Shown piece after piece: positions 30,707-59,834 of a DNA stretch of 64,000 nucleotides; the first letter of the stretch is position 1; each line of letters begins with the position of its first letter. The notes under the pieces are model-generated. The model ran no database searches. It had not been told where the DNA came from and worked only from the letters and a program-made list of their open reading frames with translations. Origin of the DNA: Spiroplasma cantharicola (GTDB lineage: Bacteria; Bacillota_I; Bacilli_A; Mycoplasmatales; Mycoplasmataceae); assembly GCF_001281045.1 (NCBI RefSeq), contig NZ_CP012622.1, positions 744,001 to 808,000 of the forward strand, given 5' to 3'. Made by a program: the position numbers and the translations under genes.

Positions 30707-30729
30707 ATATATAGATATATTTCATAAGT

Positions 30730-35019: not shown

Positions 35020-35267
35020 TTATGCCTCCCAGATTATTTTTATAATCACTATCAACTTTAAAGAAAAAAAATAAAAAGGCAATTTTTATAAAACATTTCC
35101 AAAAGTAAAAATGTTTTTTTACTAAATCTATTTAAATCTTTTATGACACTTTAATAAAACATTTTTAAAAAAAATAAACATATAAGTAGAAAATTTTTAA
35201 TATCATTAGTAATTTTAAAACTTATAAATGTATTTAGGTATTTTTTAAAAAATAATATAGAAACAAA

Positions 35268-35298
35268 AAACACATTCTATAATTAACAGAATGTGTTT
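35268..35298 (-). terminator. Terminator of the 136-aa membrane protein gene
   Basis: 11-bp stem AAACACATTCT / AGAATGTGTTT with a 9-base loop, with a minus-strand TTTTTTG after it. It closes the long co-directional run of defence genes. Confidence 0.85.
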
Positions 35299-35301
35299 AA
35301 A

Positions 35302-35712: not shown

Positions 35713-35781
35713 AATTTGTTCCTCCACTATTAATTTAATAGAAATGAAGAAATAAAAATGTCATTGAAAAACAATGACAGG

Positions 35782-36572: not shown

Positions 36573-37841
36573 TTAGAAACCAAATCTTTTTTTATGTTCT
36601 AATGTGTAATTGATAAAATTTTCATTTATTAATTCTTTATTAATTTTTAATTTTTTTGTTGTAATTTTTACTATATATTTAAATTCTTCTTCACTACATT
36701 TTTCTGTAATATGAAATCTATTTTCATGAAATATAATATAACCATGCTCAAATAATTTATCATGATTTGAACAAAATCAAAAACCATTATCTCCATCTAC
36801 AATTTCTTTGTATTTTTGTTCCAAAGAAATATTTTCTTGATTCTTTATATCTGAAAATCTTTTAATATGTGCTCCCACAATTAAACTAGGATTATTGCAA
36901 TCACAAAGTATGCATTCTTTACTTCCATATTTTGATATTAAATTATTATGATAAATCAATGAATATCTCCTTATAGCTTCTTGAATTTCTGGTAATGTTG
37001 GTGTTTTTTTATTTTCAAAAGTAATATCTGTTTTATAATGTACTTCTTTAAAAATAGCATTTAATTCCTCAGTTGGAACTTTCTTTGAATTTATTCAACC
37101 TTTAAAAAATATTTTTTTATTAATTTTTTTAATAAAATTTAAAAAATTTTTATCCATTTTAAATTCTTTAATTGAATATATATTAATTTGCCCTTTAAAA
37201 TATATTGAACAATAAATTATTATTAATCAAGCTTCTCCATTATTAGCTGCACCAAAATTTAGTAATAACGAAATTTCATTAGCATCTAATAATTCTAATA
37301 AATTTGATTTATTAGATGAGTTCTTTTTTGACAACTCGTTTCTATAATAACTTAAATTTTCAATATTTTTCAGTTCACAATTAAAAATATCATCTTGAGC
37401 GTATACATTCAGAACTTCTTTATTGAAACTTAAACTTTTAAATATATTTCTAATCATTTCAATATGTAAAGAGCAACTTAAACTAATATTTTTATATTGT
37501 TTAAAAACAAATAATACAAAATTTTTATTATCCATTTTTTTATCAACAAACATTTGCATAAAACTTATAAATCCTTGAGAAATAAATATATTGCGAGAAT
37601 CAGCTTCATATTCTCTTGAGGTTAAAATAAAATCACACTCTAAAATTTTATCATTTTCATATCTGATAATAATTGCTGTAAATTTTGTTAATTTAAAATT
37701 TTCATTTTCTATTGAAAAAAAATTATTATCAACTATTTCTTTTACACAATTTTCTAATTTCATTGTTTTTATTAATTCTTTTAATAGCTTATCATTCGCT
37801 AATATTGAATCTCTTTTAAATACTATTTTTATATTACTCAT
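36573..37841 (-). CDS. HNH restriction endonuclease of the R-M system
   Basis: 422 aa across two TGA codons. The N-terminal ~200 residues are not recognised. The C-terminal part (from ~295) is an HNH nuclease: CILCDC zinc pair at 310/313, GAHIKRFSDI with the catalytic His near 325, then GDNGFWFCSNHDKLFEHG. That is the arrangement seen in HNH restriction enzymes. Its start overlaps the methyltransferase stop by 8 bases, as expected for a restriction-modification pair. Recognition site unknown; the paired double methyltransferase suggests an asymmetric site. Confidence 0.8.
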
Positions 37842-39684
37842 AATTTTTTATTATAACTTCCCTTCTATCTTTAGTCATATTATTAGGACAATTAACTAAT
37901 TTATAATTATTTTTTGATATTCATTTTTTTAAAATTTCATTTTTATCACCCTTATGAATAAGAACATTTGATAACATAAATTTTGCACCCTTAGAGTTAA
38001 TTCTATCAATAAAATTAAGTAGCTTTTCTTCCTCTATTTTATTTCAACCTTTAAATCCCCTCTTTCCATCATTATAAGAAGCTGTTGTAATTAAATATGG
38101 AGGGTCAAGGTATATAAACGTATTTTTATCAATAATTTCTTCATAATATTCATATGAATTTGATTCAACAGTCAAATTCATTTTCTTAATTTTGTTTGAA
38201 AATGATATTATTTTTTCTCGTACATTATGATTAAAATCCGACAGCCCAACTGTATTATTAAATTTTAAATCTGAATTAAATCTAATTTGATTTGAAAAGC
38301 CAAATATTATTAGTATAAATAAAATAAAACTACTATTATTTTTATTATTATAATATTCTCTTAAACGATTATAATTTTCCTTATTATTTTTACTTAAAGA
38401 AAATTTTTTAATATAAAAATTTAATCTTTTAATTATATCAGATGATTTTTTATCTTTGAACATTCTAATTAAGTCTGCTACTTTAAAGTTATAATCATTA
38501 TATATAACATTTTCAAAATTACAATTAATACCTACATTGAATCCTCCGCCAAAAATATCGATAAATTTGAGATTTTTATTTTTAGGAAAATGTTCTTTTA
38601 AAAAACTAATAAGTTTATATTTGCTACCTGAATAATTTAAAGGAGATTCATAGATTACATCATCAAACTTTTTCTTTTTTATTAAAAAAAGATATTCTTT
38701 ATTTTCGTCATTCTTATTTTTAGAAACTGAGTTAATATATTTTTTATAATTAATTTCTTTTAAAATTACTTTTTCATCTTTAGAAAATCTCATTAACATT
38801 TTTTCAAATACTTTTTTATCTATTAACCCTTTATTACTATAACTAATTAAAAGATTTTCAGTATTTATATCACTTAATAATGAAAACATTGCTTCCTCTG
38901 CAATAATTTTTTTGGAGAAATCTGAAGATCCAATCTCCTTAGCTCTAGAACCCGTTACTCCACTAACTTCACTTTTTTCGTTTTTAGATATAGTTTCAAG
39001 TAAATGATATTGATGAGAATATTGTTGAGAAGTATATGGGGGATCTAAATATGTTAGATATATTTTATCTTTTTGAAGAACTCTTACGACCTCCTCAATT
39101 CTATTATTAAATAATATAGGCTTATGTAAATAATTAATTTTTCTTTTCTTAAATTTCTCTATGTCCAAATATAGCGATTTAAAAAATCTAGGGTCTTCTT
39201 TTTTTAAGAATGCGCCATAAACGCCAGCAATATTTGATATTCCTGAAATTCCTTCAAGTAAAATTCCCATTAAAAACGAAAATTCAGAGTATTCAATTTC
39301 ATCATTATTAAAACTTTTATAGATATCGTTAACAATAAAATCAATTCTTTTTGAATTTATTTCAGAAAAATACTTTCTGTTAGCTTTTGGAGAGTAAGTA
39401 TTATATATGTAACCCTCCAAAATATTATTTTCATTATTATAAATATTTAGCTTATCAATAATTTTATTAGTAATATCACAAAAATACATTTCTGTAAGAA
39501 TTTTAGAAAAAAATAAATAATCATTCGCTGTTACTTTTGCTCCATGGTTTGCAAAAAAACCTGTCATTGAACCAGTACCTGCAAAACCATCAAAAATATA
39601 TTTATTCTTTAAATGCAAATTATTTGATTCTAAAAATAATAAAATTTCTTCATGTAATTTATCCTTATTTCCTAAATATCTCAT
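37834..39684 (-). CDS. Fused double N6-adenine DNA methyltransferase (D12 class)
   Basis: 616 aa. Two complete alpha/D12-type adenine methyltransferase domains in tandem. Domain 1 has MRYLGNKDKL at the N-terminus, SAM motif IFDGFAGTGS (~30-39) and DPPY at 214-217. Domain 2 has NYSGSKYKL, FIDIFGGGFNVG (~375-384) and DPPY at 527-530. This mirrors FokI-type fused methylases that modify both strands of an asymmetric site. GGAGG precedes the ATG. The gene overlaps the PD-(D/E)XK gene by 20 bases and the HNH gene by 8. Role: protects the host from the endonuclease of this cluster. Confidence 0.9.
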
Positions 39685-40531
39685 TAAATTCTTCCTCCAA
39701 ATTATTAAAAAGTTTTATATCTTTGAGACCAGAAAAATCAAAGTCAATTGTATAATTAATGACCCTATCATTTTTTATAATAATTGAATTATTAAATTTC
39801 TCTAGATTATAGACTTTATATTTAATATTACTTAAATTAAATTTAATATTATTATAAAAATCTCAATTTGCTTTATTTTGAAAAAAAATGTGAATAAAAG
39901 AATCTTCATTTATATATTCAGACACGTTTTTATATAAATCCAAAATATTTGTTAAAATCCCTTCTCTATTTAATCTAGTCGTTATAAACAATGTATTTTT
40001 ATTGTCTATTTGATCTTTGCCAATTTTATATACATTATCATTCTTTTTTGTAGTTGATTTAACTTCTATATAATAATCCTTTTCTTTAATATAAAAATCT
40101 TTTTTTGAATAATTATAACTTCTATAATTTTTACCTAGAAATTTTCATTTTCATATTACTGCCAATTCGGCGTATATACCTTGTAATTCAAGAAAATCAG
40201 GTGCTAATACTTTTTGAATAAAATTTTCAATAAATTCCAATAAATTGTAGATACTTTTATAATTATTAATAAGTTTAGTAATTAACTTAAATGACTCTTG
40301 AATAATACTTAGTTCGATATTATTATTAAAGGCTAGTACTTCACCCTCAAATTGAATACCTTCAATTTTACCTACAGCTTGTCCTATATAATTAAAATTT
40401 AAATATCTAAAACTTTCATTTGAATTACTCTCTTTTTTAAGGATGAATCACCTTTTTTCCTTAGTAAACTCCTGAATCTCTTCCACCAAATACAAATTAT
40501 TATTATCATTTTTATTAATAAATTTCTTCAT
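39665..40531 (-). CDS. PD-(D/E)XK motif protein (DUF4420-like)
   Basis: 288 aa, missed in standard code because of TGA codons. The core reads LELQGIYAELAVIWKWKF, then YYIEVKSTTKKNDNVYKIGKDQI, which fits the nuclease pattern Glu...Glu-X-Lys followed by a QL/QI helix typical of DUF4420 proteins. Family proteins are repeatedly encoded beside Z1 proteins. Starts 2 bases after the Z1 stop. Likely nuclease or DNA-binding subunit of the MutL/Z1 restriction complex. Confidence 0.8.
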
Positions 40532-40533
40532 TA

Positions 40534-42045
40534 TTATTTATCCTTATCCGAGTATTTAACAAATTTCAATTCCGTTTTAATATCTACTAGCTTCTCTTTA
40601 ATTTTTTTTACATCATATGTAATTATATCAATCAATAATTCATTATATAAAAAATTATTGATTTTTTTTGCCTCAGAAAAGCACTCTTTTATATTTTGAG
40701 ATATAAAAATTTTCATTAAATCTGAGAAGTAAATTTCTAATTCCTCATTGATATTAATTTTTTTATTCCTATATCCAAATCATCTAGCTCTTTGTAGAAG
40801 AATGTCAATAGGCTGTTTGTGTTCTCTAATGTTTAGCATAAGCTCACAAATTAAATTTTCAAAAGTTAGTCCTCTTGATACCAAATTACCACCGATATAT
40901 ATACAATTTTGATTGTTATTTATTTCTTCATTTTTAGTTTTATTATTTAAAACTTTTACTTCTATACTATTATGATATTTCTCTATGTCATAATTATCAA
41001 AGTAAGCAATTTTATTTAAATTTTTTTTAACTTCCTCAAAATAATCAATCACATTATTATTTTTTAAATCCCTTAAAAAAACTGCATGAATATCAAATAA
41101 TTTATCTTTCAAAATAAAATGCTTCTTTGCATCTATATCTACATTTATTATAGAAGAAACATTTAACTTTGTATATTTCTTAACAAATGATGATAGCAAT
41201 ATATAAAATATTAGAAATTTTTTCAATAATAAATCTAGACTAAAATTATCATCCTTTTTATTTAGCTGAGATATTTCAAAATATTTTTTATTATTAAAAA
41301 AATCTATTCCAGTATAATTTTTTTCAATAATTAATTTAACAATAGCTTCTGGATAAATTTCATTAGATTTAGAATTTGTTAAATTAGCATACGGTGTAGC
41401 TGTTATTCCAATATATTTAGTATTATTTGCATTTTTGATTTTTACAATTTCATTATATATTGCAGAATTTTTTGAACTTCCATTATTTAAAGAACCGTAA
41501 TCACACTCATCATCTATTATTAAAACTTTAAAATTCTTTGAAATTGTGTTCAATTCAGCACTTATTTTTTGCATTTGCGTTTTGTTTTTAATAACATTAA
41601 TTATAATTTTAGTTTTATCTTTTTTTAGAGAAAATAAAGAAGATTTATTTTTATTTATATCATATAGCAAAATATCACATAAATTGTTATTTAATGTGTC
41701 TTTTATTCTTTTTAAAGTTTGCTTTAATAAAAGATTAGTTGATCCTCCAAAAATAATTACACAATCATAATCATTATCCAATGCATTCATAGTTATACCA
41801 ATAATATTATTTGTTTTACCTGATTGTACCTCACCTATAACAAGAATATTATTTTTAATATTCTTAAGACAAAGGAAAATATTTTTTATATTTTTATATA
41901 TTAACTCATAATATGTTTTTCCATATAAATCCTGTTTCAATTTCAAGTCATTTAAAAAAATAGAAAATAAAGGTCCACTTTCTCTATTTTCCTCATTTTT
42001 ATTATCATCAAAAAATGAGTAAAACCCCTCTATTATATTAGACAT
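40534..42045 (-). CDS. Z1-domain helicase-like ATPase
   Basis: 503 aa. Superfamily II-type ATPase: Walker A GEVQSGKT at 71-78, Walker B LIIDDECD at ~175-182, motif III-like GITATPYA ~213-220. The Z1 domain hallmark follows: GGNLVSRGLTFENL, then ILLQRARWFGYR with a TGA-coded Trp. It is somewhat shorter than many Z1 proteins. Known from comparative genomics as a partner of MutL-like ATPases in restriction-modification loci. Its start overlaps the GHKL gene stop by 8 bases. Confidence 0.88.
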
Positions 42046-43810
42046 TTTGTTGAATAAATGAAGAATTAGCTATTTCGTTTATAATATTAGCTGACCCATT
42101 GCTAATATCATTTAAGCAAGCTAAAATAAAAGATAATCTATGCAAACTTGAAATAAAACTTGTCTTTGTTATTTTTGGACCTGATACCAAGGGTTTTCAA
42201 ATAGGATGCAAAATATTTAATATAATTTCATAATTATTGCTTTCCTTTTTACTTAAAGTATAAAAATTTTCAGATACATAATTACTTTCTATATGAATAA
42301 TTTTTATTTTTCCTGATATACCAGTTTTTGGATTTCTATAAATATAAAAAAACTCAGTTCCTCCGCTTCTTACTACTGTTTCTTCCATTGATTCATCATT
42401 ATAAAAATTTAAACTATTATTATAGGTATTTTTTAAAGTTGCTTGAGCTTGCTTGGATAAAGTTCATTTTTCTGGTTCAGAGTAATTTGATTGCATACTA
42501 GTTAAAGTATTCAAAATAGGAGCATATTTTTCTTTTCATTCATTAATAAAATTTAAAAATTTTTCTTCAAATTTTTTATTTTTTCATTCAAAACCAAATT
42601 TTTGATCTGATATAGATACATAATTTCTCAAAATTAAATCATCAATTTCAAATTCACCAAAAATTCTATACTCAATTCCCTTTCCCCCATAATTTGTTCT
42701 TAGACCCGCTATATAATTTTTAGAGCCTTGTGAATCATCAAAATCATTTGGACCACACATTATTGCTCTTTTAGATTCATACACTGTAAAACCTGTATAT
42801 GATACATAATTGAATTTAAATTCACTTTTTATTTCCTTTGCATTTCTTAATATTCCTATTTTTATAGGAAGAAAATAATCCTCATTTTCATCTTTTCCAA
42901 GATAAATATTACATTCTCACTTTAATTTTTTTTCAAATTTTATTTTTTCTTTTATATCAAAAATTATTTCTTCATTCAGATTATAATTCTCTAATGCTTT
43001 TAGAAAATCAATTTTAAATTTTTCTATTATTTCATTTTTGTTTTCGGTTTTTATTTTGTTTGAATTTTTAACTACATCATTTATTCATGTGCTTATATTT
43101 TCACTTTTTGGAGTAAAAGATTCTAATGTCAAATATTCATCTTTACCTTTCTCATTTATTATTCCAATAGAAATATTAACTCCCATTTCTATAAATTTAT
43201 TAAATTTGAAACTGATAACATTACAAAAATGAATAAAATTGCTCTTCTTTAGTAAGTCATATCTACTAAAATTTCCTCTTGAAATTTTAATTTTAGTTCC
43301 TCTATTTCTATAAAATTTATCATTCAATTCATAGTTAAATCTTATTTCAGCAGGTTTTTTTTCTACTTCATATTCCACAATTTTATTATTATATTGATCT
43401 AATTCTTCTAGATCAATATAAACAAAATTTTCTTCTTTATTTTCTGTTTTCGTTCATATTTCTAATTTATTACCTGATCAGAATGTAGCAACTTTCATAC
43501 CAACACCATACCTATTTAAATTACTCTTTTTAAATTTTTTATCCGTATTTGCAAATTCTAGTGAGTTTTCAAGATTTTCAACATTCATTCCATATGCATT
43601 ATCAATTATTGATATTTGAAAGTTATCTTCTAAATGGTAATCAAAAGTTATTTCAATTGCTAATTCATTTAATTTGTTATGACCATTTAAACCTATTCAA
43701 GAAGAAATAGAATTATCAATAAATTCGCTAATCATGGTATAAGGTTTTGAAACAAGTCCATCTTCTCTTAACATATCTGTAGTGACTAATAAATTTTTTT
43801 TCCTTTTCAT
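42038..43810 (-). CDS. GHKL (MutL/MORC-like) ATPase
   Basis: 590 aa, broken into short pieces in standard code. Bergerat-fold motifs are plain: N-box EFIDNSISSW (~31-40), IIDNAYGMN (~70-78) for the DxGxG motif, and NRYGVGMKVATF (~105-116). The rest includes a beta-rich transducer-like region (GTKIKISRGNF) and a C-terminal part without known motif. Such ATPases are the bacterial relatives of eukaryotic MORC proteins and occur with Z1, PD-(D/E)XK and methylase genes. Start chosen from AAGGGG before the ATG. Confidence 0.88.
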
Positions 43811-43864
43811 TTTAATACCCCTTAATAAATAATATTATTCTATCATAATATTATAAACTTTAAT

Positions 43865-45619
43865 CTAATCAAAATTAAAGTTTATAATATTTAAAAGTTC
43901 CTTTTTTAACATTATTTTTTTTTCTTTTAAAGAAGAAAGTAGACTTATTCTTTTTATAATTTCCTTAAGATCATTAAATGATTCTTTTTTAAATAAATTT
44001 GCTTCAGTTATATTTTTTTCTTTAATCAAATATTCAAAATATTTATTAAGAGTATCTAACGCTTCCTGCAATACAATGTCAAATTCTTTTTCTATATCAT
44101 TTTCATTCTGAAAAAAATTAAATAAAGTATAAAAAATTAAATCTCGAGACGAATTGAACTTTAGTAACTTTAAGTTTTTTTTAATTTTTGACTTAAATAA
44201 AAAATAAATATTCAACATTTTTAAAATTTTTTGTGAGTACTCATTATTTTTACTTTTTGTAAAAGCTCTAATTATACTTTCTGTATTATAGAATGGACTT
44301 TTTATATCTATATAAGAAGAAGAAATATCATTATATATTTGATTATTCATTTTACCAATTTTATTTTTTATGGAAACTAAATTATCAAAACATATTGTAA
44401 AGAGCTTTAATAATTCTCCAGCGGATATTCTATTTTTAAAGTACCTTCCTAAAGAATTTGCAATTGAATTTCCATTTTTTATTTCATAATATATATTTTG
44501 ATCAATTAGTATACTTTTAATATTTAATTGATATTTCTCTAAACTTAATAAATCCTTAATTTCAATCTTATTTTGATTATTTGTAGAAAATGGTAATTTT
44601 GTCATTAAATTTTCAGATACTAATTTATATATTCTAACCAAAACATAAGTTTCATCATAATCATTAGAATTTATTTTTTTATTTGATAAATAGTGATTGT
44701 AAAGAGTTCTCATTGTTTGTTGTCCATTTATTATATTTGGGTCTTTAAAAATTACTTTATCAATTATTTTTTCATCATATTTTAAATTGCTAACTATCAT
44801 AGTGATTCCATTGTTTAATAGGAAGAAATTTTCTTTCTCATTTTCTAAACTATCTATTATTTCCTTGGAAATATTTGTTTTTTTAACTTCTTCTCTAACA
44901 TTACCTTCAAATAATGAGTCAATTTTATTTCCATTTTCTTCTTCTTTAACTATTAGTCCTATTAATTCATTTAATTTAACTTTTAAAATTACTCCCTCGT
45001 CATTATTATAGTTGCGATGTTTTATCAAATTATTTTTTTCATCAATATTAAATACATGTTTTATTCCCTTATTAATTCTTTTTCCATTATGAATATTTTT
45101 TAAAACAAATTTTAAAAAATATTCAATTGACATGCACTCATCTTTAGCATTTCCAGGAATATTTCAATTCTTAAAATTTAATTCTTGCTCAGTTTTAGTA
45201 TATACAAAAATAAACCTTACAGTAAAAATAAAATTCACTTTGGCTAATTTTTCTATAATTTCTATTTTTATTCCAGTTTTTTTATTTTTTTCTTTGCTAC
45301 TAAGACTATCATCCTTTAAACAATTTTCAATTTGTTCACTTGCAAGTTTAGATTTAGCATAATCTTGTGATTTAATATTTTTTCTTGCCTTTGCTTGAAT
45401 TAAATATAATGTTTCATTTGAAAAATAGCATAAATCCATACCTTTTATTTCTGCATTATTTTCATCAATTAGATATTCATCTACATTTTCTAGACTATTG
45501 CCCGAAATAATAGAAGAAACAAATTTCTCAAATAATTTTCCTTGATAGATTCCTTTATCATATTCATTATTAAATTTTTTCTTATTACATAAAGAAAAAA
45601 ATTTATCTAGTATTTCCAT
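43865..45619 (-). CDS. AIPR family (abortive infection/phage resistance) protein
   Basis: 584 aa joined across one TGA codon. The N-terminal ~150 residues look like a PD-(D/E)XK nuclease: AEIKGMDLCYF with Asp62 and LYLIQAKA with Gln75-X-Lys77. The AIPR core follows: FFLLNNGITMIV, then DPNIINGQQTMRTLYNH, which are hallmark motifs of the family. AIPR proteins are linked to phage resistance and cluster with Z1, GHKL and DUF4420 genes. It lies 54 bases upstream of the GHKL gene. AAAGGGG precedes the ATG. Confidence 0.87.
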
Positions 45620-45683: not shown

Positions 45684-47486
45684 TTATAATTCAAATATAA
45701 CTTTTTCCTTATTTGCTATTACTTTCATTTTTACATGAGTAATATTTTCCATACCTAATTGATTTTTTAATTTCATTTCAAAAATAAATATTGATAATGA
45801 ATTTATTACTTTTTCTGATAAAGAGTTTATAATACCTCTACCACCCATTTCCTCAATGGCGTTTTCTTGCATTATTAGATCTACTAAGTTCTCTAATTCA
45901 TCTTGAGTATATGAAATTTTAACATTGTGTTTTTTATTTAAAGCACTGACTAGTTTAGTAAGTTTACTTTCTATTATTTCTTTAAAAATAACTCTATTTG
46001 TAATGTAATTAAAAGGTATTATATTTTTCTTTCCAATTCTGTTTAGTAATTCTGGTCTTTTTAAAACATTTACAAAATGATTTTCTACAGCTCTAATAAA
46101 ATTTTTTCTTATTTCATCTTGATTACCTTTCGGATTATTTCCAACTACTCCAATATTAGAAGTAAAAATGATAAATGTCTCAGAAAAATCAATTAACTCA
46201 TTTTTTGATGAAGTAAGTCGGCCATCTTCAAGAATTTGCAAAAACTTATCCAATATTCTGCCATGAGCTTTTTCTACTTCATCAAATAATAATACTGAAA
46301 AAGGATTTTCTTTAACTGCATTTGTTAATTCTCCCCCAGAATCATAACCTATATAACCAGGAGGCGCTCCAATAAGCCTTTGATCAGATTCTTCATGATT
46401 ATACTCACTCATATCAAATCTAATTAATTTATTTTCATCTCCAAAAACTAATTTTGCAATTTGCTTTGCTAACTCAGTTTTTCCAGTTCCAGTTGGACCT
46501 GAGAAAAATAAAATTCCTTTAGGTTTTATTAACTTTTCAGAGTGCATAATTCCATTAAGTCCTAAACTTGCATTTATTAAGGTTTGTTTTACATTAGCAA
46601 TAGCAAATTCTTGGCCTTTAACTACCTCATTTAGAATATTGTCTGCATTGTTTAATTGATTTAAATCCATTTTTTCTCATTCTGAATCTCTCTTATTAAA
46701 CTGGGCCAATGAAAATAACTCCTTAAAAGTGTAGTTATCATCTTCTGTTTGAATTCTAGCCAATTGCATAATTTCTTTAACAGCAAAACCTTCAGTTAAA
46801 GCCACTGCCTCAATACGTTCTTTTGAATCTAAATTAAGTTTTTCTCTATCAATAACATTAAATGAGCGATAAAATCTATTGAAAATCTCTGCTCTTTCAT
46901 TTTTATTTGGCTTATTAATATTTACTGAAGCAAATTCTATATTTTTTGAACTAAAATCATTTGCAATATTTCCAGTATCTCTACTAATAAAAATTACTTT
47001 ACTTAGCTTATTCAAATTAATAATGTCATATTGATTTTTTACATCATCTTCAAGAATTGTTGACAACAAAATAGCTGCTTGTTCTACTAAATCTTTAATG
47101 CTCTCTTGATTTAATAAAGTATCTGAAAAGTCAATTATATATATTTTTCTGCTTATATCTTTATCTTGAATTTCATTTTTTAAATCATTAATAAACTCTT
47201 CTAAAATTTGCTTAATACTATTAGTTTCAAAATCTTCAAAATCATTTTCATCATCTAATATGTCTTGCTCTCCTAATAGAAATATTTTTCCTTTTGAGGG
47301 AGAAAACTTAATAACATCTTTATACCCAATTTCTTTTGCAATATTAACAATTTTATTATCCAAATTGCAAAATTGCTTTTTAGAATCCTGATTATTTTCT
47401 AAAAAAGTATCATAAACATTTCCACCAACTAAAAGTAAATTTTTTTGTTGTAACTTAACTTTCAATTGCTCAATAGATTTTTTCAT
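45684..47486 (-). CDS. ClpB-like double AAA protein with degenerate first AAA
   Basis: 600 aa. Residues ~1-265 look like an AAA module that has lost its Walker A loop (LLLVGGNVYD) but keeps a KIYIIDFSD strand, a KVIFISRDTGN sensor-like strand and an arginine-rich second subdomain. Residues ~290-600 are a Clp/Hsp100 D2 AAA: GPTGTGKT at 330-337, GAPPGYIGYDSGG pore loop, SVLLFDEVEKAH, IIFTSN and LLNRIG. No N-domain or ClpP-binding loop is visible. The start is 2 bases below the stop of the 341-aa gene. It likely remodels or disassembles a complex with the other three proteins (inference). Confidence 0.8.
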
Positions 47487-47487
47487 T

Positions 47488-48513
47488 TTATTTTTCCTTT
47501 ACTTTCATTTTTCTAACTCTCTGAATTGGTCTTGTTGTAGTAGAAGTTCTTGTAATTTTTTGACTAACAATAAATCTTTGTTTTGATTGTAATCCTTTGA
47601 TAAATTTTTCTGCATCTGCATCACATAGATGATCTGCATAGTTACCCATTTTGTATTCCATAGTTCCATTTAATCCAAAATTAACTATTATATTATTATT
47701 CTTATTATTAACTACTTTTAAAGATATTACAAATTGGTCTCCTACTTCAGGAGTTGAACTATTAAGAATAATATATTTTTTTGAAAAAGTTTTGAAGTTA
47801 ATTTTTTTTAATTCATCTTCAACATCTTTTACTAGCATATTTGTTTTTAAAATATTAGTTTCTATTGACTTCATTAGAGCAGAAAAGTCCATAACTTCAA
47901 TGTTAGTTTCTAATTTTGACAAATCAGAATATAATTTAGTTTTGAATTCCTTTGCAATATTTAAATTATTTAATTCATCTTTTAATTTATCTTTATAAAT
48001 TTTTATAGTCTTATCATTAGACTCTTTAAATCTAATGTTTTCTATTTCCTGATTAATACTATTAAAATTTACTTCTAGATTATTACTAAACAAATTTTTT
48101 AAAGCTTGATTTGCAATAAACCCATTTTGGCTAATTAGTTCTCCAATTTTATTTTTTTCAAAATTAATTGTTCTAATTAATTCACCTTCTAAATTTAAAG
48201 TATATTTTATATTTTGAATTTTCTTTATAATATTGTCCAACTGTAAGTAATATTTTTCAATTTGTTTATTCTTTGTAGCATTTATAATATCGTAATCTCC
48301 ACTAATGGTATGTGATCCACCAATTTGTTCAATCAAAGATTTTGACTCTTCTAATTGAGAATAAATATTTTTAATTTCCTCATTAAAAATATCACTAAAA
48401 TTATTTTTAATTGAAAAATTTTCTAATTCTTTTATTTCTTTTTCAACTTGTGTTAAAGCTAATAACTCATCTTTATTACATATATCAAATGTTATTGAAG
48501 CATTATGACTCAT
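47488..48513 (-). CDS. Unrecognised helical protein of the helicase-AAA operon
   Basis: 341 aa, no recognised family. N-terminal half is predicted helical with coiled-coil character (VEKEIKELENFSIKNN, KYYLQLDNIIKKIQN). A beta-rich stretch follows (KKYIILNSSTPEVGDQFVIS; NNIIVNFGLNGTMEYKMGNY). The basic tail is rich in Thr, Arg and Lys (TRTSTTTRPIQRVRKMKVK) and could bind nucleic acid. It sits between the 598-aa and AAA genes with spacings of 15 and 1 bases. Possibly the partner or substrate of the AAA protein. Confidence 0.7.
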   Translation of the reverse strand: MSHNASITFDICNKDELLALTQVEKEIKELENFSIKNNFSDIFNEEIKNIYSQLEESKSLIEQIGGSHTISGDYDIINATKNKQIEKYYLQLDNIIKKIQNIKYTLNLEGELIRTINFEKNKIGELISQNGFIANQALKNLFSNNLEVNFNSINQEIENIRFKESNDKTIKIYKDKLKDELNNLNIAKEFKTKLYSDLSKLETNIEVMDFSALMKSIETNILKTNMLVKDVEDELKKINFKTFSKKYIILNSSTPEVGDQFVISLKVVNNKNNNIIVNFGLNGTMEYKMGNYADHLCDADAEKFIKGLQSKQRFIVSQKITRTSTTTRPIQRVRKMKVKEK

Positions 48514-48528
48514 AAAATATTTTCCTCA

Positions 48529-50325
48529 TTATTTCTTTTTCAAATTTACAATATCTAATGTCTTTTCAATATAACCTAATTTTTCCAAATTTTCATCATT
48601 AGGTAATATTGCTCTACCATGGACAAACTCTGATAAAAATTTATAACTATCTTTATAAAAAGAATAAGCACCATCTTCTTCATAATTTGCACTTAAAACT
48701 TTTGAAAATGTTTTTTTCTTTGTAACACCAACTTTTTGTTCAAGTTTTTTTCGCAAATTAATTATTCTAACTGTGATTTTATCTTCGGTAGGAGTTTCTT
48801 TAATTTCTATTTGTTTATTAAGTTCCTTATAAAAATTATCAACTCTCAAATCCTTAATTGGAGATATATCAGTTAATTCTATTTTGTTCTTCAAAAATTT
48901 TAGACCCTCTAAAGTTAAATTTTCTTTTGTTGAAACATCAAATTGATTTTTCATTTTTATTATTTTTCAAAAATTCACTTCTTTTTTTCAATTTGTAAAA
49001 ATTTCTTTTTCTTTATATTCTCATTTATTATTTAGATATAGTTCCTCGTATGAAAAATCGGAATATTCAACAAGTAAATTTATCATATTCTTACTTAAAT
49101 CTAACGAGCTATATTTTATTAACTCTCTAAGTTCATCACTATTTAAAATATGTTTAACAAATTTTTCAAATCATATTTCAGTAATAGAAATTGATTTAAT
49201 ATTTGCCTTAATAAAATTAATTTGAATACTATCATAATTATTTTTATTTTCCAAATCCTTTAATAGAATTTCAATAAGGTTCTTATTAACTACATTTTCC
49301 AAATTTATAAAGTCGAGATATTTATTTTCAATTTTTTGAAGCGAAAATCTATTTAAAAGCAGAGTTTGATTTAAATCATGAATTTTTAATTTATCATTAT
49401 AGATATTTACTAAATATATATTATTATTATAAATACAAATTTCGCCTTCAATACCAACTTCTTCTTTCAAAATATTATCTAAGTAAATATTATAATCTTC
49501 AAAGTCTGGATAAATTATTTCCGATTTAAGTTTCTCTTTAAAATTATTTTTTTTCAAAGTAATATTATATTTTTCAAAAATAATATCCTTTAAATAATTT
49601 TCTTCTATCAACCCCAGTTTAATATGCTCAATTAATTTTTCTGCTCTTCTATTTTTAGGTAATAAATTTTTATCTTCATCTATAATAAATTCGTGCTCTT
49701 TTTCAATATATGTTAAATAATTATCTACCAAATTTATTGATTGAATTTCTTGAGATAAATGATCTATTTTAATATTAGATTCTCCAAGTGTCTCATAATA
49801 ATTTGAATCCAAATAATTTTGAATTTGAAAATCTATTTTCTGATTATTGCTTTCAATTTTTTTGTAATTCATTTTAGATTCAATTTCTTTAGGAATCTTA
49901 TTTTTTAGAACTTCACTTAAAAATATTTTCTTTTTCTTTTGGAAATTTTCAGTTAAGGAAAAATACTCTTCATTCTTAATTTTCTCTTTAATTTTTTTAT
50001 TTAGAATAAGTTCGTTAAAATTAATTTTTCAAATACTATCAATTTTTTCATAATCATTAAATTTAAAGGTAATTGTTTTTGATTTGAATAATTCCTTGAA
50101 GGAATCTTCAATAAAAATAAACATTTTAAAATCTAAATTAAAATATTTTTTCAAGAATTCCTTTAAATCTATAATTGGTGGTAAATCTTCTAACTCATTT
50201 TTATAAGCTAAAAGTAAACAAAAACGAGAGTTAAATTCATTTAGTTCCTTTAAAGAAGCAATATTAATTTCTATTTCTTGTAAAAAGTAAGGTATATTAG
50301 CATTTATTTTTATTGTATTTCTCAT
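48529..50325 (-). CDS. Unrecognised 598-aa protein of the helicase-AAA operon
   Basis: 598 aa in one frame once TGA is read as Trp; standard code splits it into three pieces (49872 and 48954 look like starts but are internal Met). No family recognised. It is mainly helical, acidic and Asn/Lys rich, with an N-terminal ~100-residue part (MRNTIKINANIPYFLQ) that seems a separate domain. The last 140 residues contain SEFVHGRAILPN. Its start overlaps the helicase stop by 16 bases, so translation is coupled. Confidence 0.75.
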
Positions 50326-53300
50326 ATTCTAATTACCCCTTCATTGTTTTCTACTTTTTCAAATCATAAATTGAAAATATCTAATGGAATTTGTTCACCA
50401 TATTCATTATCAATTAATGGCTTTACTTCGCTTCTAAAATATTCTTGAACTGCTCCTACTATAATTAATTTATGTCTTGCTCTTGATACAGCTACATTAA
50501 GTCTTTCAATTGATTTATAGAAATCAATATTTCTAGATTTAAATTCTTTAAACATTCTTTCTTCATTAAAAGATTGTTTTCCTCTTACAAGGTCTAGAAT
50601 AATAATATCTTTTTCTCTTCCTTGAAAATTATCAACTGTATCAATTTTTATTTGATTTAAATATTTTCTATCGTTAATATGTTCTCTTAACATATCTCTA
50701 ATAATAACTTTTTGTGATTTTGTTACTGAAATAATTCCAATTTGATTTGCTTTAATAGAAGAGTCTTGTTTAATTTTTTTAATTAATTCCACAATACAAT
50801 ATGCATTGTATTCATTAAAAGCTGAACCAAGCATTCTATTATTAAATAGAGATATTTTTTGGTCAAATGATACTTGCTCAGGATAAATTCTTATTTCATT
50901 ACTCCATTTAGAGTTATCTCTAACATATTCAACAAACTTTGAACTTATAAAAGAAGTGTCAATAATATTTACAGCATTCATATAAGTTTTGTCATAATTC
51001 AACTTTACAATTAAATCTTTTCTTTTAACTTCTGGTAATTGTAATTGTTCTTCATCATCATAAACAAAATTAACAATATCCATAATCTCTTTATTGAATC
51101 TATGCTGAACATTTAAAAACTTGTAAGCTTTTTTATCTCCAAAACCTTTCAATTTTTGTGCATGATTTTTAAATAAAGGAAATAAGAATAATTTTTCAAT
51201 TTTTGTTTTAAATAATTTAAATTCACTTTCATTTTCTTTTTCATCTGGATCTTTTTTATGTTTCGCTTGAAAATATTTCTTTAATGTATTCTCATCAATA
51301 TCTGATAAATTTGGAGGTAATTGTCTATAATCACCTGCTAACATAACTTTATCTGCTAAAAGGGCTGTATTTAAAATTTCAATTGTTGTTGATTTGGAAA
51401 CCTCATCTATTATTTCAAAATTAATTGGATAATCAATAAATAAGTTTCTTGTTTCATTCAAATATGAAATACTTTGCTTACCTGTTGTAGTAATACCTAT
51501 AACATTTATCAATTCATTGTTTAAAGCTTTTAAGGCAAATGACTCAATTTCTTTTTTATTAAGACTATTATCAACTTTGCTTTTAAATTTGTTACTCAAA
51601 TTTTTTAATTTATTTAAATATATTTTTTCGGAAGAAACATTTATTTTTTTAAGTATTACTTCAATAATTTTATTAATTGAAGTAACTTCTTCGGTTTTAA
51701 ATTCTCCATGCATTTTTATAAATTTTGTTATGTTATTATCAAGAGAATAAAAATTTTTAATTTCTTTGTCATATTTTCTTTTAAGAAATAAAAATTTATT
51801 ATCTAAAACTTCCTCTTTTGTTATTCCATACGTTAGACTTTCTCTTATTTCTTCTTCAATATTCTTGGCAATACTTTTTGAATAAATTCAATTAAAGTCT
51901 TCAAATTTGTATTTTTCATATTCCCGATTTTTAATCATTTCAAATAAAAACGTTGGAACAAAACTTACTTCCTCCTCATTTGACTTATAATTATCAAAAA
52001 ATATTTTTAAATCAGTTTCTCCTTGAACATCAAAGTCCTTTAAAACAAAGTTATCAATTGCATATACAAAATTTTGATACATATGTTTATAGTCATAACC
52101 CTCGGTACTTAATTCTTCTTCTTTATCTCTCACATAAGTGTTTTTATAGAAAATAATATTAGGATCTGTTCTAAAAAATTCCCTAAGTCTATCAAAAGCA
52201 TTATTGATTGCTTCATGAGAAAAAGATGTAATTAAAGTATTTTCATTTTTTTTAGAAATACTATAAGTTATTGCAGCAATTGTTTGAGTTTTTCCAGTAC
52301 CTGGTGGTCCTTGCAAATAACTTAATGAATTTGATGATAAGGCCATTTCATATGCTTCACGTTGTTTAGTATTTAAATTCAAACTAATATCTTTTTCTGT
52401 ACTCAAAGACAATTTATTAAGTTCGATACATTCTGGATATTCTAATGAAGTTGCTAAATATGGATTTCTATAAATACCCTTCTCTAACATAAGTATTGCA
52501 GAATAATACCTATTAATTTTTGTAAATAAACCCAAATCAAAATCTGATAAATATCAAATTTGCTTACCCTTGTAATCTTTTTTAAGTAATGATGATAATT
52601 CAATTTCATTAAAATTTATTAACTTTTCTTCATCATCTTTTGGGTCTGTTTTTAAAATTACACTTTTAAAATTATATGTAGAAAACTCAACACTATTTTT
52701 AAGTTCATTAAAATTATTCACATCTTTTTCTAAACTTAAAATTAAATGATTTGCTTCTTGATTTAAGTTTTCTCATTTATTTAAGTTGTTATTAATTTTA
52801 TTTAATTCAGTTGTAACCTTATTAATCTCTTGTTTTATATAATTTAATTTACTATCTAATTTTTTTATATATAGATTTATGGATTTTTCCTTAGAATTAA
52901 AAACCTCTAAATCTTGCTTCAATTCTTTAAGAGTTTCTGTTTCTTTTAAACTATTATTTAATTTACTTTTTTTATTTTTACTTGTCTTTTCAATGCTTTT
53001 TTCCAGAAGTTTTATATTTTTTTTAACATTGAATATTTCTTCTTTTATCTTTAAATGTTCATCTGAAGCTAGTTTAGTAGTTTCTATATGCTCTTCCTTA
53101 TCTTTTTCAAGTTTCTCGAAATCTATTTCAACTTTATTTTTATCAATAAATAGTATTTTAATTTTGTCTTCATTTACTTTAACTTTTTCTAAATTTTTAG
53201 AAATTTCTTCATTTATTATAGTAATTTTATTATCAATATAATCTTGTATATCAAAATTTTTTAAAGAACTAATTACAGCACTTGTCTTTATATCATCTCT

Positions 53301-54212
53301 TTCACTTGAAATAATTTTATATCTACCCTCTGCTATTTTTGTTTTACTGTCTATCATTAATATTAGATTATCTTTTTCTAAACTATTTTCTTCTAATGTA
53401 AAATCTTTTAAAGAAAGTAGTTTAGCTTGTGAAGAGGTTTTTTTCTTATCTCTTAAATGTTTTCTAAAATCAATAATAAAATCATGTCACCCTCTTAAAT
53501 TCAAACCTTCATCAGATCTTCCAGTTAAAATATCAGATCTTGATAAATCCTTGAATAGAGTAAAAAAATCATCCTTATTTTCAAATAGCTTTAAAATATT
53601 ATTTTTATTTTCTTCTACATACTCAATATTATCAATTAAATTAGTTATTACTTTAATATTAAGAGACTTAACATATTCATAGCCGAAGTCTAATGACTCA
53701 ACTCTTGTTATATCAAATCATAACTTTATATCAGAATTAACATCTTGCATTGTATTATTTTCGTCTTTTTCATAGCAAAAATCTGCGTAAATAACAATTG
53801 AGTTTTTTAATAAATTAAATTCTTCTTTAGTTTTTTCATCAAATTTAAAAATGAAGGCCAAACCAGATATTAATATACCTTGTTTATCTTTTGATTCCTT
53901 TAATTTTCTTTCAAAGGCATGAAGATTTCTAAGTGTTGAATTTTGATTTTTATCATTACTAATATTAGTATCAAATGTTGATAAATTTAAATACATTAAT
54001 TCTTTCAATGATTTCTCATTCAACAATTCAAAAAACTTTAAAAGGATAAATTCATCTGATTCAATATCAGAATTTAATATTTTTTTGATTTTTGATATAA
54101 CAATATCTCTACATAAAATATCATTATTTTTATTAAAGGCTTTAATACCTATTTCCAGTTTAAGTTCTTCATAATTTGACTCTTTCTCTGAAATTTTAAA
54201 TTGTAAATTCAT
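50310..54212 (-). CDS. UPF1/DNA2-like superfamily 1 helicase with coiled-coil insert
   Basis: 1300 aa across six or more TGA codons. N-terminal ~285 residues are unrecognised. A long Lys/Glu coiled coil follows (~286-480). The SF1B helicase core starts ~610: LNTKQREAYEMAL (Q motif), GPPGTGKT at 635-642, then FEIIDEVSKS with DE at ~936, GDYRQLPP, VDNFQGREKDIIILDLVRG and LNVAVSRARHKLIIVG near the end. That motif set marks the UPF1/DNA2/COG1112 group, which unwinds RNA or DNA. It is the first gene of a four-gene operon with a promoter in the 54213-54350 spacer. Confidence 0.88.
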
Positions 54213-55287: not shown

Positions 55288-57681
55288 TTATATAATCATT
55301 TTAAGATATTCTTTGTACTTTTCATTTTTTAAGCAATCAATAATATTTTTAATACTATAATCATAATTTATCATTTCATAATCCAAATTTTTTAATATTT
55401 CTGATATAAAATTACTATTCAAATCCATCGAAGTAAGTAATAATAATATTTCTTTTTTAGTAGTTTTATTATTAGTTTTATCTTCTAATTCATCATTATA
55501 AATTATTTCATCCATTTTATTAGGAGTATCACTAAAAATTATAGATATAAGATTATTAAAAAAAGGCTTTATATATTTTTCCAAAATATTATTTCTATTT
55601 TGTATATAAAAATCAATAAATTTACTCATATGTACTTTATTATTTGAATTAAATTCTTCATCTGAATCTGATGTCTTATTCGTTACAATTGATTTATTTT
55701 TATCTGAAATATAAATTATTTTATTTGATGAAGATAACAAACTTAAATAATTTTTATATCCATTTTTAATACTTTTATTAAAAATAAAATCATCAAATAC
55801 TAATCTAATTTTATTTAAAAAATTATTATTATCATTATCTATTAAATAATATTTTTTAAATAAACTAAATATATCATTTCTAGATATATCACTATTTTTA
55901 AGTTTAATTAAAGAAGTTTTATAAAACTCAAAATTATCCAAAACTAAATTTTTAAATTCCTTAACTTTAATAATAGGACTTACAAAATCAGTTAGATTAT
56001 ATTCTTTAAAATTATTTTCAATATTACCTTCTGGATCAATAATTTTTTTTTCAACATTATCTAAAGATACTGATAATTTATTACTAAATTTTACATTATT
56101 TTTTTTAGACTTTATATTTAGTACAACTTGATTTCAATGTTCAATATTTCTTTCTTTGTTTAAATTTAATTTTTCTATTATATTTTCTAATTCTTTTTCA
56201 TTTTTCTTAATATTATCAACAAAAATTGAATCTGGATCGAAATTAAGGAATGTATCAAATACTTTCCTTATATCTGTAAATACCTCACCAACAATTTTAC
56301 TTCCTAATCTTCCAACCCTTCCAACTAAATTGGCCAGATTCAAATAGTCCGCCTTATTTCCATCAGTTTTAGAATTCAATATTATCAGTCGTTCGCAATT
56401 AAGATTAACTCCATAAGTAATTGTACTAGAACAAAAAATATAATTAAAATCACTTTCTCTAAAGCATTTTTCTATCATTCTTCTTAAAGTTGCTTCCATA
56501 TTACCATTATGAATTAAGCAATTTCTTTTCATGAAATCAAAAATTCTATAATCTTCAAATTCTGTTATAAATTCTTTTATATAATTACTTATAATATTTT
56601 TTTTAAAATTATTATTTAAATCATGAATAGGAATTTTTGTTGTATCTAAAGAATAAATTTCTCTATTAGAGATATACACTATAGTTTGTTTTTTAAAGGC
56701 AAGTATTTTTTTTCATCAGTCCTCTTTAATTTCAAGATTAATTCCCTCATTTTTATTAAAAAACATTCTATTTTTATTCTTGTCATAAAAATATATCAAT
56801 TGAGTTGATAAAGAATTATCACTATTAAATTCTTTTACTTTAAAGTCCGAAATTCTATCTTCTATTTGTTGTGCTGAATTTTTTAAATAAGGTAACAAAA
56901 AATAGGATTTTATATTTTGTTTTTTTGCAATTATTAATAAATTTCAATTAAAATTACTTCTTTCTTGATAAGGATTAACCATTGTTGTATAGAACTCATC
57001 AAATAAAAGTACGGTATTTTTATTAATTTGAGACATGTTGTTAGAAATTAAATTTAAAGCTCTCTCCTGAGTTAATATATTAATCGAATTACTCTTATAG
57101 ATTGAACTTAAATTACTTGAAATTCCCATTTTATTAAAATTATTAAAATATTCATTTACTAATGAAAGAGTTGGAACAATAAAAATAATCATTTGACCAT
57201 TATTAAATTTGTTTAAAGCATATCATCTAATTAAAGTTGATTTACCAACGGAAGTCGGCGCTGATATAAGTAAATTATTATTATCCTCCATTTGTTTTAA
57301 AGCTTTTTTCTGAAATTCATTAAATAGGCTATTTTCAGTTATGTTAACTGTATTTTTTATTCTGTCAATATAATTAGTTATATTTAACTTATCTATATCC
57401 GAAATTTCATTTAAACTTTTTTTATCATTATAACCCAATTTATATTTGAACATAAATTTTCGTAATTCATTTATATCTGTAAGTCCCTCTAAAATATTAT
57501 ATATATCCTTCAAATAGTTTTTTATTTCAATATTTGATTCATTTATTCAATATAATCAATTTATTATTCCCGAAAAATTATTTATATAATCATTTTTCAA
57601 TTTTATCTTACAATAATTAACTTTAAGATATATTTTCTTTAGTAGATCTAAAATTTTTTTCAATAAGCTTATATTATTCAT
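55288..57681 (-). CDS. hamB: HamB-like DExH helicase of Hachiman system
   Basis: 797 aa, read across many TGA codons. SKI2-like superfamily II helicase: ISAPTSVGKSTLIR with Walker A at 141-148, IVPTLSLVNEY, ILTQERAL, VLLFDEFYTT (DEFY at 228-231), IFCSSTITYGVNL and NLVGRVGRLG (arginine finger ~454-458). The C-terminal ~250 residues are helical and Asn-rich. I start at the ATG of MNNISLLKK because GGAGG lies 8 bases before it and it overlaps the upstream gene stop by 8 bases. Overlapping nuclease-helicase pairs of this kind are the Hachiman defence system, in which the helicase senses damaged or foreign DNA and frees the HamA nuclease. Confidence 0.8.
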
Positions 57682-58525
57682 TAAAGAAAGCCTCCAGATT
57701 TTGATAAAAATTATTTAAATGATTATCCTCTATTTCATAAATAGTTTTATCTACAGGAGAAATGATATTTATTTCTAACTCTGGATTTAGAAGATTATTT
57801 ATGTATTTTTGAGCCAATTTTTCTACATTTTCTCAGTCAATTATTTTATTTGAAAAAAATACAAGTACATTTAAGCAATTTTTATATAAGGAATCTTCAA
57901 TATAATATATTTTTTTGTTATCTTTTACTATCACATTTTTTTGTTCATCATCACTATCTAATTCTATAAATTTACTATATATATTTTTCAACTGCTCAAA
58001 AAATAATTCATTTAATTGTTGATGCAAATTTTGTTCTAGGTTTTGAATTGTCCATAAGTCGTTAATTGCTAAATCTATATGTTCTTTAACATTAGCAAAT
58101 GTTCCACTTGAAATTTCCTGAATAAATAGAGACTCAAAGCCTTGCTTTAGTCTCTGATTAAAATTACTATATGAGCTTTTTGATTCTAAAATTATTATTT
58201 TATTTTTTTCTCTAGATATGAGTATATTATCCATTCCAAATTTAGCATTTTTTCTATGCTTATTTGGTCTTCAACCTATTGCAAAACAGTCATACTTATC
58301 TGATATATATGCAGATGCTAGGTATTCAAGAAAAATTCCGATTGCGAACTTTAATTGAGAATTTCTTTGAAAAAAGTCCTTTGGAAAAGTTAAATTGAAA
58401 GCTGGGTTTCTAGTCGCATTGAATAAATCAAATTTTCTTTGCTTAAGTTTTTCTTCTAGTTCTTTTAATATACAATTTGCTTCATCATTTCCATTCGATT
58501 CTATTAGAAATATTTTATCTCTCAT
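57674..58525 (-). CDS. hamA: HamA-like nuclease (DUF1837-type) of Hachiman system
   Basis: 283 aa, in keeping with HamA. PD-(D/E)XK motif: GMDNILISREKNKIIILESKSS with Asp99, Glu114 and Lys116, followed by FNQRLKQGFESLFIQEI. The central domain before it reads FAIGIFLEYLASAYISDKYDCFAIG. It acts as the effector nuclease of the HamAB pair. It lies 37 bases downstream of the DUF2130 gene and is translationally coupled to hamB. The DUF1837 assignment rests on pattern and context, not a search. Confidence 0.75.
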
Positions 58526-58562: not shown

Positions 58563-59834
58563 CTATATATTAAACCCTTCTAAAAAATCCAACATTAATG
58601 TCTGTCAATTTCTTCATAATTTTTCACGATTTTTTTTAATATCTTCAACTTTATTAATAATGGTTCTCTCATTTCCTTCAATGGCTTCAATTGACTTTTG
58701 AATGATTCCTTTAAATGTTTCAAATGATTTAAGTTTTCATGAATTAAATTTTTCAAATGCTTCATTGTTATCTGATTTATCTCTTAAATTTGATTCAATC
58801 AAAATTAATTTTCTTACCATTGATGAAACAAAAACAAAACTATCAGGATCAGCAATTAAAATATTTTTATTTTTTTGTGAAACCAAGAAAGGTACTTTGA
58901 ATTTTTCTCCAGTACTTGTTGCTACAAGAACTGCATAATTTGCTCCTTCCTTTGCCATGTCTTCTGTTAACTTGGGTTCTCAACTATCTTTTCATTCTCC
59001 ATTTTTACATTCAAAAACTATTTTTCCAAGATCTAATTCTTTTTCTCTAACTACTTGTAAGAAGTCAGCTTTTGTTCCTGTTCTTGTAATTTTATTTATT
59101 TCATCACCTGTTAAAGAAGCTAATTTTCTTAATTCTAATTCAACTTCATTTTCTCAGTTTTCACCTTTTGTTTTATTATTTAAAATTCTATTTGTTGCAT
59201 TAGCAACTTTTAAATCAGTTATTTCTTTTTCTTTTGAAGAAATAACTTCTTCATATTTAGTTTTAAGTTCCAGCTCTTTTTGATTTAATAATAATTTATT
59301 TTCACTTTCAATTTTTTGCACTTCTAATAAAGCTTGAGTTGTTTTAGCTTCTCACTGTGCTTTTTGTAAATTAAAGTTACTTTCTAATTCTAATTTTTGT
59401 TTTTGAAGTTTTTGTTCATTTAATTGGTCCAAAGAACTTGCTTCTGCTTCTAATTTTTGAATTTTATTCATTAAAGTAGTAACTTCAACTTGTTTTTCTT
59501 CCAAAAATTTAGCTTTTAAATTTGCTTCTAATTCTTTTAAATCTCTTTGATTATTTAATTTAATTGCTTCAATACTTGTATTTAATATATCAATATTATT
59601 TTTCAAAGAAGATACAACTTTTTCTTTTTCAAGTTCTAAATCTTTTTTTTGAGATTCAAATTCAAGACTATATGTTTGATGTAATCTTGTTGTTATTTGA
59701 CTTTCAATTGTTTTTGTTAATTCTTCTTCTAAGTGCTTTTTAAATTGATTAATACTTTCACTGTCTCTTGTTCCTAACTGTATTAAATCAATTTCTTGAT
59801 TACATTTATAACAAGTTATCAGTAGTTTTTTCAT
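58563..59834 (-). CDS. DUF2130-family coiled-coil/nuclease-fold protein
   Basis: 423 aa. N-terminus MKKLLITCYKCNQEIDL has a CxxC pair. Residues ~20-215 are a long coiled coil. The C-terminal DUF2130 domain follows: ENEVELELRKL, TKADFLQVV and GKIVFECKNGEW, whose Glu-Cys-Lys fits a PD-(D/E)XK-like fold, then YAVLVATSTG and FVFVSSMVRKLI. DUF2130 proteins are widespread and their function is not established. It is the first gene ahead of hamA (37-base spacer), so it may be an accessory part of this Hachiman locus or a neighbour. Confidence 0.85.

What the first reader, a model, noticed from the sequence alone, without database searches (positions are those of the whole stretch)
45684..54212. Four-gene operon: UPF1-like helicase + two unknown proteins + ClpB-like AAA, candidate undescribed defence system
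Seen: a 1300-aa SF1 helicase, a 598-aa protein, a 341-aa basic-tailed protein and a 600-aa ClpB-like protein with a dead first AAA. They are arranged with a 16-base overlap, a 15-base gap and a 1-base gap, behind their own promoter, inside a run of defence genes. Known: UPF1-like helicases occur in defence (for example Mokosh) and ClpB-like AAA proteins do too (for example Dodola), but I know of no described system that joins these two with these unknown partners. Inference: the helicase senses or unwinds nucleic acid, and the AAA protein remodels the complex or frees an effector, perhaps the 341-aa basic protein.
Basis: partly seen in the sequence, partly recalled or inferred. Interest (0 to 1): 0.88.

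Follow-up and report, generated by a model that had tools for sequence, protein, structure and literature searches.

The report
Mobile helicase-RNase-ClpB defence cassette, reduced
The four genes are a real, conserved unit that sits in a variable defence hotspot and is a stripped-down mycoplasma version of a five-gene mobile system (a UPF1-like helicase, a swappable RNA-cutting protein, an adaptor, a ClpB-like motor and an iron-sulphur protein) found from mycoplasmas to proteobacterial plasmids, and it probably attacks the RNA of invaders.

Summary
In detail: four co-directional genes (1300, 598, 341, 600 aa; code 4) with the stated overlap and gaps. Only the promoter claim is unsupported. The four genes travel together in fixed order (48 of 50 genomes with the ClpB-like gene also have the 598-aa gene's family). 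The ancestral form has a fifth gene, an NrdG-like 4Fe-4S/radical-SAM protein, lost in the window's branch. The five-gene form also occurs in Bacilli, beside a serine recombinase on an IMG/VR contig, and on proteobacterial plasmids. The 598-aa protein (X) is most likely the effector: its N-terminal region is shared, but its C-terminus is a HEPN RNase (Bacilli) or a PIN RNase (Proteobacteria, best PDB match SMG6). In the window copy the HEPN catalytic arginine is gone. The operon sits in a defence hotspot whose content differs between sister genomes, and the tree separates it from a second, genus-wide five-gene copy in the same genome. A UPF1-like helicase plus a downstream wHTH-nuclease protein is an already published theme (CoCoNuT CnuH/CnuE); the ClpB-like, adaptor and 4Fe-4S partners are not described in the papers I could search. 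Best reading: an RNA-targeting anti-invader system, a new variant of a known kind. No activity has been shown.

The parts
50310..54212 (-). HEL: SF1 UPF1-like helicase, 1300 aa, all motifs intact, 301 residues between Walker A and B, no kinase domain
   Evidence: MkoA model 5e-66 over the part after its kinase; PDB best DNA2/UPF1/SMUBP2
48529..50325 (-). X: probable effector subunit, 598 aa; N-terminal region shared with PIN- and HEPN-type relatives; C-terminal HEPN-like region with the catalytic Arg lost and the His kept (FLSEFVHG)
   Evidence: no direct family match of the window protein itself
47488..48513 (-). Y: 341-aa protein, long poorly conserved middle part, conserved C-terminal domain (Y287 and Y292 nearly invariant) and basic tail; adaptor candidate
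45684..47486 (-). CLP: 600-aa Hsp100-type protein, degenerate NBD1 without Walker A plus intact ClpB-type NBD2
55288..58525 (-). neighbour in the same hotspot: HamB-like helicase (55288-57681) and a short partner in HamA position (57674-58525), i.e. Hachiman-like; not part of the operon
   Evidence: the partner has only a weak HEC-02B match (0.0019) and no PDB match
36573..45619 (-). neighbour in the same hotspot: HNH, twin D12 methylase, DUF4420, Z1, GHKL ATPase, AIPR/AbiU genes; not part of the operon
58563..59834 (-). DUF2130 gene, one edge of the defence hotspot (other edge 29861-36537)

Best explanation
The operon is a mobile anti-invader (most likely anti-phage or anti-plasmid) system that targets RNA. 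Proposed mechanism: the UPF1-like helicase loads on aberrant or foreign nucleic acid, probably RNA, and translocates; protein X binds it through its N-terminal region and brings a nuclease (HEPN in Bacilli and some mycoplasmas, SMG6-like PIN in Proteobacteria); the adaptor Y and the ClpB-like ring (dead NBD1, live NBD2) use ATP to hold, release or recycle the complex; the 4Fe-4S protein of the five-gene form is a regulator or modifier. The window carries a four-gene mycoplasma branch without the 4Fe-4S gene and with the HEPN arginine lost, so here it either acts through helicase and AAA remodelling alone, uses another active site in X, or is losing its effector step. Shown: gene content, order, linkage, motif states, hotspot position, C-terminal swap of X, horizontal spread. 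Inferred: RNA as target, the order of events, complex formation, anti-phage effect.
For: Fixed order HEL-X-Y-CLP in all complete loci read; CLP and X co-occur in 48 of 50 genomes, Fisher p 2e-42, not corrected for relatedness. The window copy lies between DUF2130 and an fba flank where sister genomes carry other defence genes (R-M, AIPR-like, SIR2-like, HamB-like), and G070 has the operon at the same site with a Dcm-type methylase beside it; a relative lies next to McrB. Five-gene copies on proteobacterial plasmids, with type I R-M remnants or ArdA near, and beside a serine recombinase. X: DUF4145 (HEPN) above Pfam cut-off in L080, HEPN_MAE just under it in L082; RNxxxH in the Bacilli X read; mycoplasma X and Bacilli X align over full length (E 5e-26); the N-terminal 215 columns match PIN-type X (E 2e-6, prob 89); the PIN matches SMG6 in PDB at 7e-9. 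Horizontal transfer: L042 (mollicute) CLP is 89% identical to L080 and nests in the Bacilli. Purifying selection dN/dS 0.05-0.23.
Against: No activity is known for any member. A CLP of the five-gene type is present in all 20 genomes of the genus (same locus in the two compared), which looks like a fixed function, and the copies of that type read here have lost the HEPN motif altogether. P0002 itself matches no HEPN model. The window X lacks the catalytic Arg. Hotspot association is guilt by neighbourhood. RNA as substrate rests on the known specificity of HEPN and PIN domains.
Confidence: 0.6

Rival explanations
1. It is a domesticated RNA or protein quality-control machine (UPF1-like helicase plus ClpB-like disaggregase working on stalled or aberrant complexes), not a defence system; the hotspot copy is a paralogue carried along.
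For: Genus-wide fixed copy; loss of the HEPN motif in that copy while helicase and AAA stay conserved; ClpB kinship.
Against: The window copy is not a duplicate of that copy (separate 100/100 clade), is patchy, lies in a variable defence hotspot, and relatives sit on plasmids; X and Y of the fixed copy (84%, 81%) are less conserved than leuS (94%), though two flanking genes are as variable.
Confidence: 0.2
2. The window copy is a decaying relic: rSAM lost, HEPN arginine lost, on the way to the broken copies seen elsewhere.
For: G070's copy has one premature stop in X; fragmented copies L089, L090, L092 and M. hyorhinis L315; Arg loss in P0002.
Against: All four window frames are open and the pair with G070 shows dN/dS 0.05-0.23, including X (0.19); the Arg-less form is shared by several mycoplasma copies with open frames.
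Confidence: 0.12
3. It works like Mokosh, i.e. helicase-centred defence, and belongs to it.
For: MkoA model is the best PADLOC match of the helicase (5e-66).
Against: The best matched stretch starts after the kinase part of the MkoA model (model position 290; the kinase of another protein maps to 6-277); no kinase match in Pfam; X, Y and CLP match no Mokosh model.
Confidence: 0.08

Closest known systems
CoCoNuT types II/III-A, CnuH-CnuE pair (PMC11090510)
   Same: UPF1-like SF1 helicase with a large insertion after Walker A, followed by a protein with an N-terminal region and a C-terminal HEPN (or other nuclease); found among restriction systems; RNA proposed as target
   Different: no McrB-like GTPase or McrC in the operon; instead ClpB-like AAA, Y and a 4Fe-4S protein; PIN as alternative effector; whether the N-terminus of X is the published elongated wHTH was not tested
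Mokosh (MkoA helicase)
   Same: helicase family (MkoA model 5e-66)
   Different: no kinase domain, different partners
Dodola (DolB) and PADLOC candidate PDC-M37 (M37B)
   Same: ClpB-like AAA in a defence operon (DolB 6e-16, PDC-M37B 1e-28, partial matches)
   Different: other partner genes; the rest of the operon does not match these systems
UPF1-SMG6 pair of eukaryotic nonsense-mediated decay
   Same: a UPF1-type helicase encoded next to an SMG6-like PIN nuclease in the proteobacterial operons
   Different: bacterial operon, with AAA, Y and 4Fe-4S partners; similarity by family only; the window copy has a HEPN-like end, not PIN
ClpB/ClpC Hsp100 unfoldases
   Same: NBD1+NBD2 architecture, live NBD2
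   Different: NBD1 has no Walker A; only the NBD2 half matches the ClpB models

Membership tests
CoCoNuT (type IV restriction) | McrB-like GTPase (CnuB) and McrC homologue (CnuC) in the operon | tested here: not met
   none of the four proteins matches McrB/McrC in Pfam, PADLOC or NCBIfam; the annotated five-gene plasmid loci show none either
CoCoNuT (type IV restriction) | UPF1-like helicase with large insertion after Walker A (CnuH) | tested here: met
   Walker A to B 301 residues in P0001, 251-519 in relatives
CoCoNuT (type IV restriction) | CnuE: elongated wHTH fused to a C-terminal nuclease, HEPN in types II and III-A | tested here: inconclusive
   HEPN found in orthologues, PIN in others; the wHTH was not tested against CnuE sequences; structure model of X failed
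Mokosh type I | kinase domain fused to the helicase (MkoA) | tested here: not met
   no kinase match; best stretch on the MkoA model begins at position 290
Mokosh type I | MkoB partner | tested here: inconclusive
   no PADLOC match of X, Y or CLP to a Mokosh model; I did not check whether the library holds an MkoB model
Dodola | DolA (DUF6414) with ClpB-like DolB | tested here: not met
   DolB partial match only; no DUF6414 or DolA match
HEPN RNase | R-x4-6-H catalytic motif in the C-terminal helical domain | tested here: not met
   P0002 lacks the Arg; Bacilli and some mycoplasma orthologues have RNxxxH
ClpB disaggregase | two active NBDs | tested here: not met
   NBD1 without Walker A in all 21 homologues checked
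anti-phage defence system | measured protection against phage | not testable with these tools
   needs plaque assays

The most novel reading that the evidence does not exclude
A widespread mobile bacterial RNA-surveillance immune machine in which a UPF1-like helicase is coupled to an interchangeable endoribonuclease (SMG6-like PIN or HEPN) and controlled by a half-dead Hsp100 ring, an adaptor and a 4Fe-4S/radical-SAM protein: a prokaryotic counterpart of the UPF1-SMG6 pair used against invaders, and fixed in one whole mycoplasma genus.
Probability: 0.3. Interest if true: 0.85.

Novelty: new variant of a known kind. Interest (0 to 1): 0.62.

Why it matters
It joins three things not described together in the papers I could search: a UPF1-like helicase with a swappable RNase partner, a ClpB-type ring with a dead first domain, and a 4Fe-4S protein, on mobile DNA across phyla. 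If the PIN/UPF1-like pair works on RNA, it gives a testable bacterial parallel to the proposal that eukaryotic nonsense-mediated decay grew out of conflict systems (discussed in PMC5031192). The window also documents a defence hotspot in a small code-4 genome.

Tried and rejected
(1) Y as a DUF1257/DUF2997 relative (my first idea from the MSH N-terminus and the C-terminal motif): neither family is among the Pfam matches listed for the 20 Y members, and DUF1257 has no match in the genome; dropped. (2) Y as a relative of the MSGPK proteins beside CLP-4Fe-4S in other phyla: profile comparison not significant (prob 0.8); left open. (3) HEPN and Y profiles against PDB sequences: no credible match. 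(5) Promoter and terminator scan: no better than shuffles. (6) E. coli genomes: only ordinary ClpB-type matches. Phage records: only matches that cover about half of CLP, no full-length CLP. IMG/VR: one contig with the full five-gene set. (7) Literature searches for a named system with these parts found none in the held library; PLuB (an NCBIfam name) could not be traced. (8) HamA identity of 57674-58525 could not be shown by PDB or Pfam.
Full report
WHAT IS THERE. Under code 4 the minus strand holds four tightly packed genes at exactly the coordinates and spacings given. HEL (1300 aa) has every SF1 motif and is closest in PDB to DNA2, UPF1 and SMUBP2. CLP (600 aa) has an intact ClpB-type second ATPase domain and a first domain without Walker A; its AF2 model aligns over its whole length with NBD1-NBD2 of ClpB and ClpC (Z about 26, rmsd 6-8 over the full length). 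X (598 aa) and Y (341 aa) have no significant match in Pfam, PADLOC or NCBIfam.

A SECOND COPY AND A FIFTH GENE. The same genome holds the same gene order elsewhere (L004), with a fifth gene overlapping CLP: an NrdG-like 4Fe-4S/radical-SAM protein. CLP of that type is in all 20 genomes of the genus sampled. In the order, 58 of 320 genomes hold X; 48 of 50 genomes with CLP also hold X, and the two exceptions are a lone CLP (L049) and a copy at a contig end (L046). In non-mycoplasma Bacilli the five-gene order recurs (L080, L081, L082, L084; L083 has a broken fifth gene, and in L085 only Y, CLP and the fifth gene were recognised). L083 and the mycoplasma copy L042 are preceded by a small HTH gene, and an IMG/VR contig carries serine recombinase, HTH, HEL, X, Y, CLP, 4Fe-4S (L316). 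Five proteobacterial plasmid copies keep the order with PGAP names AAA domain protein, PIN domain protein, hypothetical protein, AAA family ATPase, 4Fe-4S protein.

X IS THE LIKELY EFFECTOR. Bacilli X end in a HEPN domain: DUF4145 above Pfam cut-off in L080 (4e-5), HEPN_MAE_28990 just under cut-off in L082, and RNxxxH in all five Bacilli X read plus L042 and L316. Mycoplasma X and Bacilli X align over their length (E 5e-26). Proteobacterial X share the N-terminal 215 columns (E 2e-6, probability 89) but end in a PIN domain whose only PDB matches below 0.1 are SMG6/EST1A (7e-9) and SMG5. A constant N-terminus with exchanged nuclease ends is what an effector slot looks like. In the window protein the aligned end reads FLSEFVHG: the His is kept, the Arg is lost; the copies of the genus-wide type have lost the motif altogether, while some mycoplasma copies (L052, L054, L086, L088) keep it. 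P0002 itself has no HEPN match and its structure model failed, so its HEPN nature rests on the profile alignment.

DEFENCE HOTSPOT. The island between the DUF2130 gene (58563-59834) and the 35782/fba flank is variable among sister genomes: this genome has a HamB-like pair, the operon, and an AIPR-GHKL-Z1-DUF4420-methylase-HNH cluster; G070 has HNH, an ATPase, the operon with a stop in X, a Dcm-type methylase and a Z1-like gene, between the same two flanks; G020 has, between the same flanks, an AIPR-like gene and a D12-type methylase and no operon. Beside the DUF2130 gene, G057 has methylases, G124 a SIR2-like gene and G037 a HamB-like gene, again without the operon (Dcm-type, SIR2-like and HNH in relatives are my reading of the sequence, not model matches). 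Another mycoplasma copy is beside McrB.

HISTORY. The CLP tree puts the window copy in a 100/100 clade of 14 four-gene mycoplasma copies, apart from the genus-wide five-gene copy, which groups with Bacilli (98/94). So the window copy is not a recent duplicate. L042, a code-4 genome, has a CLP 89% identical to a standard-code Bacilli copy: recent transfer across codes. Nearest-copy dN/dS is 0.05-0.23. Broken copies occur repeatedly.

MECHANISM. I favour an RNA-targeting anti-invader complex: helicase as sensor and motor, X as nuclease arm, Y as adaptor, CLP as ATP-driven remodeller, 4Fe-4S protein as regulator. The CoCoNuT paper (PMC11090510, section 9) already states that UPF1-like helicases of this kind are typically followed by an elongated wHTH protein fused to a nuclease, and proposes RNA as target; in CoCoNuTs the other partners are McrB/McrC and Hsp70-like proteins. 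The terms ClpB and radical do not occur in the main text of that paper. So the HEL-X part is a known theme; the CLP-Y-4Fe-4S part is the new combination.

LIMITS. Everything is comparative. The fixed genus-wide copy is the strongest argument for a housekeeping role somewhere in the family. Flanking genes show that X and Y of that copy are variable but not exceptional (folD 84%, MFS 85%, X 84%, Y 81%, leuS 94%). The literature held here is partial, so a named description elsewhere cannot be excluded.

Noticed in passing
L004 4781-14419 (G000:C1:172780-182418): Second, five-gene copy of the same operon in the same genome; its CLP type is found in all 20 genomes of the genus sampled, and in the two genomes compared the locus lies at the same place between leuS/ferritin-like and MFS/folD genes.
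   Followed up: yes
window 29861-59834: Defence hotspot between a DUF2130 gene and an fba/SHOCT flank with different defence genes in sister genomes.
   Followed up: partly
window 36573-45619: HNH, twin D12 methylase, DUF4420, Z1, MORC-like GHKL and AIPR/AbiU genes in one run, resembling GHKL-Z1 restriction systems.
   Followed up: partly
window 55288-58525: HamB-like helicase with a short partner overlapping it; the partner matches no HamA model.
   Followed up: partly
L042 versus L080: A code-4 mycoplasma copy whose CLP is 89% identical to a standard-code Bacilli copy: transfer across genetic codes.
   Followed up: partly
L311 1-16999 (Aristaeella lactis plasmid): Another arrangement of the CLP and 4Fe-4S genes: DUF4011 helicase, kinase, MSGPK protein, FHA, 4Fe-4S, CLP, PP2C, DUF6273 protein, second kinase.
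   Followed up: no
L314 9992-20088 and L128 3917-14041: CLP, 4Fe-4S, 2086-2087-aa helicase and an MSGPK protein in a row in rhizobia, without X.
   Followed up: no
L127 1981-15631 (Methylocaldum): Kinase, membrane coiled-coil protein, MSGPK protein, CLP and 4Fe-4S directly upstream of genes that look like type III CRISPR (Cmr-like); the CRISPR reading is by eye.
   Followed up: no
window 501-35019: Many paralogous lipoprotein genes of about 615 aa with ABC transporter pairs between some of them.
   Followed up: no
L315 2941-10295 (Mesomycoplasma hyorhinis NCTC10121): Fragmented remnant of the four-gene operon near the end of the record.
   Followed up: no
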